DNA of 64,000 nt from Ochrobactrum vermis. Lineage in GTDB: Bacteria; Pseudomonadota; Alphaproteobacteria; Rhizobiales; Rhizobiaceae. Positions 8,072-12,061 of this stretch are shown here, piece by piece (positions within the stretch are counted from its first letter, which is position 1; each line of letters begins with the position of its first letter). A program made the position numbers and the translations under genes. Under the pieces are notes generated by a model. That model was not told the DNA's origin. It ran no database searches and saw nothing but the letters and a program-made list of their open reading frames with translations. Where the stretch lies: positions 372,001 to 436,000 of the forward strand of contig NZ_PCOC01000002.1 in NCBI RefSeq assembly GCF_002975205.1. The letters are read 5' to 3'.

Positions 8072-8389
8072 ATGACGATATCGAGGCCAGCGCTTGAGGA
8101 AGATACGTTGTTCATCGCCTGCACGCGACCTGCAATGTACGCAGGCGTCACCATGGAAGCCATGGGAATGAACGTCATTGCGACGACGATTTTCTATCTC
8201 GCGGCCGGTTCTGTCGCCTATGCGCTCGTCGGGGTGGTTTTTCATTTTATCTTCCGCGCACTCGTCAAACATGACCACAACATGTTTCGCATTGTCGTGG
8301 CCTGGGTCGAGACGCGTGGGCGATCACGGAATACTTCCCATTGGGGTGGTAGCTCGATCTCTCCGCTGCGACTTTCCCGCCGGTTTTGA
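8072..8389 (+). CDS. virB3: VirB3 inner-membrane protein, C-terminus cut by IS insertion
   Basis: 105 residues. It starts EEDTLFIACTRPAMYAGVTM, the typical VirB3 N-terminus, then a membrane segment (~residues 33-60), FRALVKHDHNMFRI and the conserved WVETRGR and WGGSSISPLRLSRRF end. The stop TGA at 8387-8389 is the first three bases of the IS3-family element. Joining the sequence across the element restores RRF followed by DERDLGFA and a natural stop at 9685-9687. The insertion therefore removes only the last eight residues. VirB3 partners VirB4 in the secretion apparatus, and function may survive. Confidence 0.88.
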   Translation: MTISRPALEEDTLFIACTRPAMYAGVTMEAMGMNVIATTIFYLAAGSVAYALVGVVFHFIFRALVKHDHNMFRIVVAWVETRGRSRNTSHWGGSSISPLRLSRRF

Positions 8390-8448
8390 CCTGCCACTAA
8401 GAATTTCCTCCAGATTGGATTAGAGTTCGGCCCATTGAGGACGGACTT

Positions 8449-8715
8449 ATGAAGAAGCAGAGATTTACGGAAGAGCAGATCATTGGGGTGTTGAAGGAGC
8501 AGGAGGCGGGCGTTAAGGCCGCTGATCTTTGCCGCAAGCACGGGATTTCCGAGGCGACCTTTTACAACTGGAAGGCCAAATACGGCGGCATGGAAGTGTC
8601 GGAGGCCAAGCGTCTGAAGGCGCTTGAGGACGAGAATGCCAAGCTGAAGAAGTTGCTGGCCGAGCAGATGCTGGATGTTGCCGCTCTTCGTGAGCTTCTC
8701 GGAAAAAAATGGTAG
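8449..8715 (+). CDS. IS3-family transposase OrfA
   Basis: An 88-residue OrfA with the helix-turn-helix (residues ~8-45, FTEEQIIGVLKEQEAG through CRKHGISEATFYNWKAKYGG) and a leucine-zipper helix (SEAKRLKALEDENAKLKKLL) for OrfA/OrfAB multimerisation. It ends at LLGKKW. A run of seven A residues immediately before the stop is a likely slippage site for making the OrfAB transposase, and orfB begins at an ATG 7 bp before the orfA end. Confidence 0.93.
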   Translation: MKKQRFTEEQIIGVLKEQEAGVKAADLCRKHGISEATFYNWKAKYGGMEVSEAKRLKALEDENAKLKKLLAEQMLDVAALRELLGKKW

Positions 8716-9638
8716 GGCCTGCCGCAAAGCGTGACGCCGTTGCACATCTGAAGGATATATTGGGTCTTTCGGAGCGGCGGGCCTGCCAGATTGTGTCGGC
8801 TGATCGCAAGATGATCCGCTATCGGTCCTGCCGACCGCCGGAGGTCGAATTGCGAGCAAAGTTGCGCGATCTGGCCAACGAGCGACGACGGTTCGGCTAC
8901 CGACGGCTGTTCATTCTGCTTCGGCGAGACGGAGAGCCTTCCGGGGTTAATCGCATCTATCGGCTGTATCGCGAGGAAGGTCTTTCCGTGCGCAAGCGGA
9001 AAGCCAGGCGTCGTGCTGTTGGCACGCGTGCCCCGATCCTCGTCGAAGCAAAGGCGAATGCTCGCTGGTCGCTGGATTTCGTCCACGATCAGTTCACCTG
9101 CGGCAGACGCTTCCGCATCCTCAATGTGGTTGACGACGTCACACGTGAATGCCTGGCGGCGATCCCGGACACATCTATCTCCGGTCGCCGTGTCGCGAGG
9201 GAGCTGACGACGCTTGTCGAGCGAAGAGGCAAGCCCGGCATGATTGTTTCAGACAACGGGACCGAACTGACCTCAAATGCCATCCTCGCCTGGTCGAAGG
9301 ATCACAAGGTCGAGTGGCACTACATCGCGCCGGGAAGACCGATGCAAAACGGTTATGTCGAGAGTTTCAATGGCCGCATGCGCGACGAGTTACTCAACGA
9401 GAGCCTGTTCTTTGGTCTCGATCATGCCCGGAGCGCCATTGCCGAATGGGCCGACGATTACAACAATTTCCGGCCCCACTCATCGCTCGGATACCAGACC
9501 CCGGCAGATTATGCAGGGATCATCGCCGCAACCGGCTCCAACGCTACGCAATTTGGAAGCTTCGCGTTTCCGCCGGTTGCTCCCATCACGCCATGTGGCG
9601 TATCAAAAACCGCCGAGGCTCTAATCGCAGCCGGATGA
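8709..9638 (+). CDS. IS3-family transposase OrfB (DDE)
   Basis: A 309-residue catalytic subunit with an rve-type integrase core. The three acidic residues are visible in SLDFVHD (~residue 120), SDNGTE (~residue 181) and ESFNGRMRDE (~residue 217). The C-terminal NNFRPHSSLGYQTPADY block is standard. It appears intact. Its stop codon overlaps an ATG (ATGA at 9635-9638) that is in frame with the downstream virB4. Confidence 0.93.
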   Translation: MVGPAAKRDAVAHLKDILGLSERRACQIVSADRKMIRYRSCRPPEVELRAKLRDLANERRRFGYRRLFILLRRDGEPSGVNRIYRLYREEGLSVRKRKARRRAVGTRAPILVEAKANARWSLDFVHDQFTCGRRFRILNVVDDVTRECLAAIPDTSISGRRVARELTTLVERRGKPGMIVSDNGTELTSNAILAWSKDHKVEWHYIAPGRPMQNGYVESFNGRMRDELLNESLFFGLDHARSAIAEWADDYNNFRPHSSLGYQTPADYAGIIAATGSNATQFGSFAFPPVAPITPCGVSKTAEALIAAG

Positions 9639-9679
9639 AACTTCAGTGGCAGGTCAGTTTGACGAAAGGGATCTCGGCT

Positions 9680-12061
9680 TTGCCTGATATTTCAACGCTC
9701 AAATCCCGGGAGCTCGGGCCAGAGACTTTCATTCCCTATGTGCGTCATATTGATGAAGTGACCGTCGCTTTGGACTCGCGGGCGCTAATAGTGATGATCG
9801 CCCTCGAAGGCGTCTCGTTCGAGACCGCAGATATTCTGGATCTCAATGCTCTACACCGCGATCTCAACACGCTTTACAGGAACGTCGCCGACGAGCGACT
9901 TGCTTTATGGACCCATTTGATCCGACGTCGCGACAATTCTTATCCCGACGGGAGGTTTACAGCGACGTTCTCCGCTCAGCTCAACGAAAAATATCGCGAG
10001 CGCATGGTGGATGAGGATCTTTTTCACAATGGTCTCTATCTGACAATAGTGTGGTCGCCGCCAAGTGACCCTGCGGAAAAGGTAGCGAAGTTGCTTTCGC
10101 GTTTAACCCGTGCTCGCCATTCGGGTGACGAACTCGATGAGGAGGCACTGAAGAAACTCCGCGACAAGGTGGTCGATATCACGGCGGGGTTGAAGCGGTT
10201 TGAACCGCGGGTGTTGTCGCTTTACGATCATGACGGTCTACTATTTTCTGAGCCAAGCGAGGTCTTGCACCAACTCGTCGGCGGGCGAAAGGAGCCGGTC
10301 CCGCTCACCGAGGGCCGCATCGCTTCCGCAATCTATTCTGACCGTGTTATTATTGGTCGAGAAACGATCGAAATCCGGCAAGAAGCTGAAAGCCGCTTTG
10401 CCGGAATGCTGAGCTTTAAGGAATACCCCGCCACCACAAGGCCCAGCATGTTAGACGGCGTCTTGACCAGTCCCTTTGAACTGATTTTGTCGCAATCTTT
10501 TACCTTCGTCTCCAAAGCCGACGCCCGGACAATAATGGGCCGAAAGCAAAATCAGATGCTCAGTAGCGGTGATAAGGCAGCGTCGCAGATCGAAGAGCTC
10601 GACGATGCCATGGACGATCTGGAATCGAACCGGTTCGTTCTCGGCGAGCATCATTTGACGCTGACCGTTTTTGCTCCAACGGTAAAAGGACTGACTGATC
10701 ATCTGGCAAAGGCACGCGCGAGCCTGACCAATGGTGGCGCTGTCGTCGCTCGCGAAGATCTCGGTCTCGAAGCTGCATGGTGGGCGCAGCTCCCTGGTAA
10801 TTTTAGGTTTCGCGCGCGGTCTAGCGCAATCTCGTCGCGGAATTTCGCAGCACTTTCGCCATTCCATTCCTATCCGGTCGGCCAGAAAGACGGCAACGAA
10901 TGGGGGACAGCTGTCGCGCTTCTCAAAACCGCATCCGGTTCGCCATACTATTTCAATTTCCATTATGGCGATCTCGGCAACGCTTTCATTTGTGGTCCCT
11001 CAGGCGCAGGCAAGACCGTGCTGCTCAACTTCATGCTGTCCCAGCTTGAAAAACACGATCCGCATGTGATCTTCTTTGACAAGGACCGCGGTGCTGATCT
11101 CTACGTCCGTGCCACCGGTGGCACTTATCACCCCCTTAAAAACGGCAAGTCCACCGGCTGCGCTCCTCTTAAGGCTCTGGACCTGACGCCAGAAAACAAG
11201 GTCTTTCTGGCAGACTGGATCGGAAAGCTGGTCGGGTCGGCGTCACGGGAGTTGTCTGTTACCGAGTTACGCGACATTTCAGCCTCTATTGATGGGCTCG
11301 CCGACCTCCCGGTCGAACAGCGCACGATCGGTGCGCTTCGGACTTTCCTCGACAATACGAACCCCGAAGGCATCGCCGCCCGGCTACGCAGGTGGGAAAA
11401 GGGAGGTCCGCTTGGCTGGGTCTTCGACAATGTCAATGAGGAGATAGGCTTCGGAAATTTCAGCGTCAGCAGAAAGATGGTTGGATACGACATGACTGAT
11501 TTCCTGGATAATGAGGAAATACGCTCGCCCCTGATGGCTTATCTTTTCCATCGTGTCGAACAACTCATTGACGGTCGGCGCATCATCATCGTCATTGATG
11601 AATTCTGGAAGGCTTTGCAAGATGACGCCTTCCGGGACCTTGCGCAAAACAAGCTGAAGACGATCCGCAAACAAAATGGTCTCATGTTGTTCGCGACGCA
11701 AAGCCCGCGCGACGCGATCAATTCGCCGATTGCCCATACCATCATTGAGCAATGCCCAACCCAGATTTTTCTCCCGAACTCACGCGGAAGTCACGTCGAT
11801 TATGTCGACGGCTTCAAGCTGACAGAGCGGGAATACGAGCTGATTGCACGTGAACTTAGCGTCGAAAGTCGCCGCTTCGTTCTGAAGCAGGGGCATAACA
11901 GCGTCGTGGCCGAACTGAACCTCAACGGCTTCGACGACGAACTCGCCATTCTTTCCGGCAGGACTGCCAACGTCGAGCTTGTGGACGCAATCCGCGGCGA
12001 GATCGGCGACAGGCTTGAGAACTGGCTACCCGTTTTCCAACAGCGAAGGAGTGCAAGCTGA
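9680..12061 (+). CDS. virB4: VirB4 ATPase of the type IV secretion system
   Basis: A 793-residue AAA+ ATPase that powers pilus assembly and substrate transfer. Walker A is GPSGAGKTVLL at ~residue 438 and Walker B is IIIVIDEFWK at ~residue 634; the N-terminal FIPYVRHIDE and SFETAD blocks are typical. I place the native start at TTG 9680, with AAAGGG upstream, overlapping the reconstructed virB3 stop. The IS element also provides an in-frame ATG at 9635, which would add 15 residues (MKLQWQVSLTKGISA). The frame is open further upstream only because it reads through IS sequence. Confidence 0.9.
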   Translation: MPDISTLKSRELGPETFIPYVRHIDEVTVALDSRALIVMIALEGVSFETADILDLNALHRDLNTLYRNVADERLALWTHLIRRRDNSYPDGRFTATFSAQLNEKYRERMVDEDLFHNGLYLTIVWSPPSDPAEKVAKLLSRLTRARHSGDELDEEALKKLRDKVVDITAGLKRFEPRVLSLYDHDGLLFSEPSEVLHQLVGGRKEPVPLTEGRIASAIYSDRVIIGRETIEIRQEAESRFAGMLSFKEYPATTRPSMLDGVLTSPFELILSQSFTFVSKADARTIMGRKQNQMLSSGDKAASQIEELDDAMDDLESNRFVLGEHHLTLTVFAPTVKGLTDHLAKARASLTNGGAVVAREDLGLEAAWWAQLPGNFRFRARSSAISSRNFAALSPFHSYPVGQKDGNEWGTAVALLKTASGSPYYFNFHYGDLGNAFICGPSGAGKTVLLNFMLSQLEKHDPHVIFFDKDRGADLYVRATGGTYHPLKNGKSTGCAPLKALDLTPENKVFLADWIGKLVGSASRELSVTELRDISASIDGLADLPVEQRTIGALRTFLDNTNPEGIAARLRRWEKGGPLGWVFDNVNEEIGFGNFSVSRKMVGYDMTDFLDNEEIRSPLMAYLFHRVEQLIDGRRIIIVIDEFWKALQDDAFRDLAQNKLKTIRKQNGLMLFATQSPRDAINSPIAHTIIEQCPTQIFLPNSRGSHVDYVDGFKLTEREYELIARELSVESRRFVLKQGHNSVVAELNLNGFDDELAILSGRTANVELVDAIRGEIGDRLENWLPVFQQRRSAS

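What the first reader, a model, noticed from the sequence alone, without database searches (positions are those of the whole stretch)
8383..9687. IS element sits exactly at the virB3/virB4 junction and offers virB4 a new start
An IS3-family element with 12-bp perfect ends and a GTTT duplication is inserted in the last codons of virB3. Removing it and one GTTT restores VirB3 ending RRFDERDLGFA and a virB4 TTG start overlapping that stop. The element supplies VirB3 with a stop (its own first TGA) and an ATG overlapping the transposase stop (ATGA, 9635-9638) that is in frame with virB4. The downstream virB genes could thus be kept in frame, and perhaps driven by IS transcription and translational coupling from the transposase. 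An IS that lands in an essential operon junction without obvious loss suggests either selection for this site or altered expression.
Basis: partly seen in the sequence, partly recalled or inferred. Interest (0 to 1): 0.72.

Follow-up and report, generated by a model that had tools for sequence, protein, structure and literature searches.

The report
Ordinary jumping gene in conjugation operon
A common jumping gene has landed in the last codons of one conjugation gene (virB3), just upstream of the next gene's own ribosome-binding site and start codon, which it left untouched, so it is an ordinary recent insertion and needs no new start codon to be explained.

Summary
A 1,270-bp IS3-family element (8387-9656) with 12-bp perfect ends and a GTTT duplication sits in the last codons of virB3 and supplies its stop. 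All five full-length copies found in the genome have 4-bp duplications, the IS407-group hallmark; three are identical, so movement is recent. In 95 of 95 loci from other genomes (84 distinct) the site is uninterrupted; in 79 of 80 named loci virB4 starts with TTG or ATG overlapping the virB3 stop.

A new virB4 start is not needed. The native Shine-Dalgarno (9665-9671) and TTG (9680) lie downstream of the insertion, intact. That signal looks constrained in relatives: AGG in 72 of 72 Arg cases, against 7.1% of virB4 Arg codons. The IS-borne ATG (9635) has weaker, badly spaced pairing, belongs to the IS end in 25 of 25 rows read, and meets virB4 in frame one time in three. No plasmid record had one place covering 80% of either junction query, so selection for the site is unsupported. 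VirB3 loses eight residues and its overlap with virB4 is broken; effects on expression and transfer are unknown.

The parts
8387..9656 (+). IS3-family (IS407-group-like) insertion sequence, 1,270 bp
   Evidence: 12-bp perfect inverted ends; identical copies at two other places of the genome, 86% copies at two more; NCBIfam IS3 transposase
8383..8386 (.). GTTT target duplication, left copy
   Evidence: sequence; the target is single in uninterrupted relatives
9657..9660 (.). GTTT target duplication, right copy
   Evidence: sequence
8449..8715 (+). orfA, 88 aa, HTH_Tnp_1
   Evidence: Pfam PF01527 E 7.7e-27; A7 run at 8703-8709 at the orfA/orfB overlap is a candidate -1 slippery site (inference from the sequence)
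8709..9638 (+). orfB, 309 aa, DDE transposase; its TGA 9636-9638 overlaps ATG 9635-9637
   Evidence: NCBIfam NF033516 above cut-off (219.4 against 160 bits); Pfam rve, rve_3
8072..8389 (+). virB3, 105 aa, stopped by the first TGA of the IS; Pfam domain whole, last 8 residues lost relative to relatives
   Evidence: Pfam VirB3 residues 9-92, profile 1-84 of 84; tail comparison
9665..9671 (+). native Shine-Dalgarno of virB4 (AAAGGGA), inside the former last codons of virB3, intact
   Evidence: pairing -8.9 kcal/mol; conserved in relatives
9680..12061 (+). virB4, 793 aa, native TTG start at 9680
   Evidence: Pfam CagE_TrbE_VirB 2e-52 (read from 9659); start matches relatives
9685..9687 (+). former virB3 stop codon, overlapping the virB4 start, now orphaned
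   Evidence: sequence; same overlap in 79 of 80 named loci
7670..8068 (+). virB2 pilin
   Evidence: Pfam TrbC/VirB2 3.8e-25
12061..17966 (+). downstream virB5, virB6, a 99-aa ORF without a Pfam match, virB8, virB9, virB10, virB11, all open
   Evidence: Pfam/NCBIfam

Best explanation
A recent, ordinary transposition of an IS407-group-like IS3-family element into the 3' end of virB3 of a plasmid-type conjugation (VirB) operon. It landed 8 bases upstream of the virB4 Shine-Dalgarno. VirB3 now ends eight residues early at the element's first stop codon. virB4 keeps its own Shine-Dalgarno and TTG start and can be translated from them. What is lost is the overlap that tied virB4 translation to virB3 termination; what is added is 1.27 kb of transposase mRNA between the genes. 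Shown: structure, identical sister copies, intact start signals, uninterrupted relatives. Inferred: recency, and that virB4 is still translated from TTG 9680, probably at a changed level. Not known: whether the operon is still transcribed through the element and whether transfer works.
For: Three copies 100% identical over 1,270 bp; five of five full-length copies with 4-bp duplications of different sequence (GTTT, GCTT, TTTC, GGAC, AGGC). [quoted passage not shown] 95 of 95 loci of other genomes uninterrupted. Native Shine-Dalgarno and TTG intact: at the overlapping codon 72 of 79 loci have AGG, 6 AAG, 1 GGG, so 72 of 72 Arg codons are AGG, against 7.1% of 5,326 Arg codons in the same virB4 genes. 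Pairing -8.9 against -5.6 kcal/mol for the IS ATG. The two identical sister copies appear, from ORF lists alone, to lie between genes.
Against: In its new context the Shine-Dalgarno is predicted less accessible than in most relatives (mean unpaired 0.30, relatives' median 0.44; 13% of 95 as low or lower) and the start codon is mostly paired (0.06, median 0.38; 21% as low or lower), so the native start without virB3 coupling may be weak. A weak Shine-Dalgarno does not rule out a start in this operon: the starts called for virB8 (0.1) and virB11 (-1.4 kcal/mol) pair worse than ATG 9635. No expression data.
Confidence: 0.87

Rival explanations
1. virB4 is now started at the IS-borne ATG (9635) by termination-reinitiation from the transposase stop, giving a VirB4 with 15 extra N-terminal residues; the IS rescues the operon.
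For: ATG overlaps the orfB stop and is in frame, open. Two other called starts of this operon (virB8, virB11) pair with the 16S tail even less well, so poor pairing alone does not exclude it.
Against: Weaker and badly spaced pairing than the intact native start; the ATGA is a constant of the IS end whatever lies beside it (25 of 25 rows); IS3-family transposases are poorly expressed as a rule (recalled).
Confidence: 0.07
2. The insertion lowers or silences virB4-virB11 by polarity (transcription termination or loss of coupling), so the operon is transfer-defective. This shares the anatomy of the best explanation and differs from it only in outcome.
For: 1.27 kb insert inside an operon; overlap with virB3 lost; lower predicted Shine-Dalgarno accessibility than in most relatives.
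Against: IS genes are co-oriented, which should limit Rho-dependent polarity (inference). Only one of five terminator-like hits in 6300-10400 lies inside the IS (8894-8909, 5 pairs), and five is near the shuffle mean of 4.1. Downstream genes are open, but a recent insertion would leave them so anyway.
Confidence: 0.35
3. The junction is a selected or preferred IS target.
For: The insertion falls in the short stretch between the VirB3 domain end and the virB4 Shine-Dalgarno.
Against: No plasmid record had one place covering 80% of either junction query (0 of 489, 0 of 522); 95 of 95 loci uninterrupted; five different 4-bp targets.
Confidence: 0.02

Closest known systems
IS3 family, IS407 group (one matching rhizobial plasmid record is annotated 'IS3-like element ISAtu5 family transposase')
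   Same: Overlapping orfA/orfB, IS3-type DDE transposase, 4-bp target duplications
   Different: No difference of kind seen; among the 20 records listed the closest full-length copy is 91.9% identical (Shinella), so it may be a separately named element. ISfinder was not at hand.
Plasmid VirB-type conjugation operons of Rhizobiales
   Same: virB2-virB11 order, virB3/virB4 overlap with buried Shine-Dalgarno, Ti-type TraG and MobA/MobL relaxase in the same window
   Different: This copy lies on a large replicon (contig C2, which reaches at least 1.85 Mb) and carries the IS

Membership tests
IS3 family | IS3-type DDE transposase | tested here: met
   NF033516 219.4 bits, cut-off 160
IS3 family | orfA and orfB overlapping in -1 frame, joined by programmed frameshift | tested here: inconclusive
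   overlap and A7 run seen in the sequence; frameshifting itself not testable here
IS407 group | 4-bp target duplication | tested here: met
   5 of 5 full-length copies; rule from a passage of PMC10045372
IS407 group | transposase falls in the IS407 clade | not tested
   no tree built; no ISfinder at hand
VirB-type T4SS | VirB2, B3, B4, B5, B6, B8, B9, B10, B11 in order | tested here: met
   no Pfam family in the two ORFs upstream of virB2 (6464-7105, 7096-7767) nor in 13931-14230, so VirB1 and VirB7 were not recognised
Conjugation (not effector) system | coupling protein and relaxase nearby | tested here: met
   Ti-type TraG 32855-34777; MobA/MobL plus helicase 35504-39457; that they work with this operon is inferred

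The most novel reading that the evidence does not exclude
The IS replaces virB3 as the translational partner of virB4: ribosomes finishing the transposase restart at ATG 9635 or unmask TTG 9680, so that the conjugation machinery is expressed in step with transposase.
Probability: 0.07. Interest if true: 0.4.

Novelty: new member of a known kind. Interest (0 to 1): 0.13.

Why it matters
Little for novelty: it is one more IS insertion. It does serve as a natural experiment on the virB3-virB4 overlap, because it separates the two genes while sparing the buried Shine-Dalgarno, and the comparison shows strong codon bias (AGG) at that buried signal in relatives.

Tried and rejected
A hybrid promoter at the IS right end was considered: TTGACG at 9659-9664 resembles a -35, but the scan found no site there, and any -10 would fall at or beyond the virB4 start. 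A 16S search to name the host gave no match. The host was placed instead by kinship: four genomes that the tool calls 'same genus' (G009, G017, G028, G033) hold stretches identical to contigs titled Brucella (B. tritici for two of them, B. pecoris, B. pseudogrignonensis). A second virB4 that could act in trans: one search of the own genome found only distant ones on C3 (36% and 26%). Paper searches listed nothing on this insertion, but only 8 of 8, 12 of 259 and 12 of 67 matching papers were listed; of PMC10045372 passages were seen, the others only as listings.

Full report
Observation. The element at 8387-9656 is 1,270 bp, with ends TGACCTGCCACT and AGTGGCAGGTCA and GTTT at 8383-8386 and 9657-9660. 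It encodes orfA (8449-8715, 88 aa) and orfB (8709-9638, 309 aa). orfB passes the NCBIfam IS3 transposase cut-off (219.4 against 160 bits). VirB3 (8072-8389, 105 aa) ends at the element's first TGA; its Pfam domain is complete (residues 9-92, profile 1-84 of 84).

Copies. The own genome (5.40 Mb, 3 contigs; window at C2:372001-436000) gave 12 matches to the element, five of them full-length, all on C2: three identical, two at 86%. Each of the five has its own 4-bp duplication: GTTT, GCTT, TTTC, GGAC, AGGC. PMC10045372 (passages seen) ties 4-bp duplications to the IS407 subgroup of IS3. Identity of three copies suggests recent movement. Of 150 related genomes 22, the own one included, have a match at E up to 1e-100. 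Among plasmid records 184 have a match, 96 of them covering at least 80% of the element in one place; 119 are Rhizobium and 42 Sinorhizobium.

Uninterrupted relatives. The VirB4 search kept the best 80 of 233 named loci. A search of 200 related genomes with virB2-virB3 DNA gave a match in 21, the own one included; six of the other 20 are short matches of about 30-50 bases that yielded no junction. Searching the two flanks separately, 99 fetched loci hold both: 4 are this locus itself and 95 are from other genomes (80 named, 15 from G genomes; 84 distinct 300-base sequences, since six of the 15 repeat named loci). In 93 of 95 the flanks overlap by exactly 4 bases, in L101 by 3 and in L087 by 5; none has an insert. 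In 79 of 80 named loci the VirB3 stop overlaps a virB4 start, TTG in 67 and ATG in 12; L085 did not fit the pattern. VirB3 tails vary around (F/Y)DERD(L/I)..A: of the 25 commonest tails printed, covering 75 of 79 loci, those with DERD cover 68; exactly FDERDLGFA was printed for one locus. The virB4 frame is open upstream of this start for a median of only 12 codons (range 1-85), so a start far upstream is not the general rule.

Start signal. The insertion point is upstream of what virB4 needs to start: AAAGGGA at 9665-9671 and TTG at 9680. In the 79 loci the codon at the Arg position of the tail is AGG in 72, AAG in 6 and GGG in 1; so 72 of 72 Arg codons are AGG, whereas AGG is 7.1% of 5,326 Arg codons in virB4 of the same loci. 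The loci are related, so this is not a formal probability, but the next codon does vary (GAT and GAC). Pairing with the 16S tail is -8.9 kcal/mol for the native start (relatives: mean -8.7, range -9.0 to -5.9), -5.6 for ATG 9635 with about 15 nt spacing, and -6.4 for TTG 9659, also in frame. Of 1,000 random 16-mers of the operon 4.2% reach the native value and 17.2% that of ATG 9635. Controls in the same call are mixed: virB5 -9.1, virB10 -11.5, virB3 -6.9, orfA -7.1, but virB11 -1.4, virB8 0.1 and orfB -3.5 at the starts called, so weak pairing alone does not exclude a start.

The IS-borne ATG. ATGA is present at the right end in 25 of 25 rows that reached it: 7 rows for the three identical own copies (fetched repeatedly), 2 for the own 86% copies, and 16 from other genomes; matches that stopped short of the last 2 of 120 bases or had E above 1e-8 were dropped uncounted. 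The frame in question is open for the last 169 codons of the IS and runs on into whatever lies next, also at the two sister copies; a second frame leaves with a GTG, the third with no start. In-frame meeting with virB4 is thus a one-in-three event.

Selection for the site. Queries of 301 bases spanning the right and left junctions matched 489 and 522 plasmid records, and in none did one place cover 80% of the query (30 records of each were listed, none above 54%). So no recurrence was found there. Records very near the window's genome may be left out by the tool.

Context. The operon has virB2 to virB11; VirB1 and VirB7 were not recognised by Pfam. A Ti-type TraG (32855-34777) and a MobA/MobL relaxase-helicase with a BID-type C-terminal match (35504-39457) lie in the same window. 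By content this is plasmid-type conjugation machinery. The host is in the genus Brucella as the tool groups genomes: four 'same genus' genomes hold stretches identical to contigs titled Brucella. It is most likely one of the former Ochrobactrum members (inference from those names); the species is not known.

Against the reading. In the new context the native Shine-Dalgarno is predicted less accessible (0.30) than the median of 95 relatives (0.44; 13% as low or lower), and the start codon is mostly paired (0.06; relatives' median 0.38; 21% as low or lower). virB4 expression may therefore have dropped. The sequence cannot say whether transcription runs through the element.

Verdict. Observation confirmed; the idea of a new start is possible but unneeded and unlikely; selection for the site is not supported. 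An ordinary recent insertion.

Noticed in passing
35504-39457: MobA/MobL relaxase-helicase with a C-terminal match to the BID domain of Bartonella effectors (PF17841, 4.1e-10); relaxases with BID-like tails are known (recalled).
   Followed up: no
543-5797: Upstream of the operon: a transketolase/pyruvate-dehydrogenase-like protein (+ strand) facing a SbnA/cysteine-synthase-like enzyme and a GHMP kinase (both - strand); may be a small metabolic cluster.
   Followed up: no
24203-25033: Another rve-type transposase ORF on the minus strand, beside a stretch of about 25 to 32 kb that holds only ORFs below 200 aa.
   Followed up: no
9665-9671 and loci L009-L088: The virB4 Shine-Dalgarno buried in virB3 is strongly conserved across Rhizobiales (AGG in 72 of 72 Arg cases among 79 loci).
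   Followed up: yes
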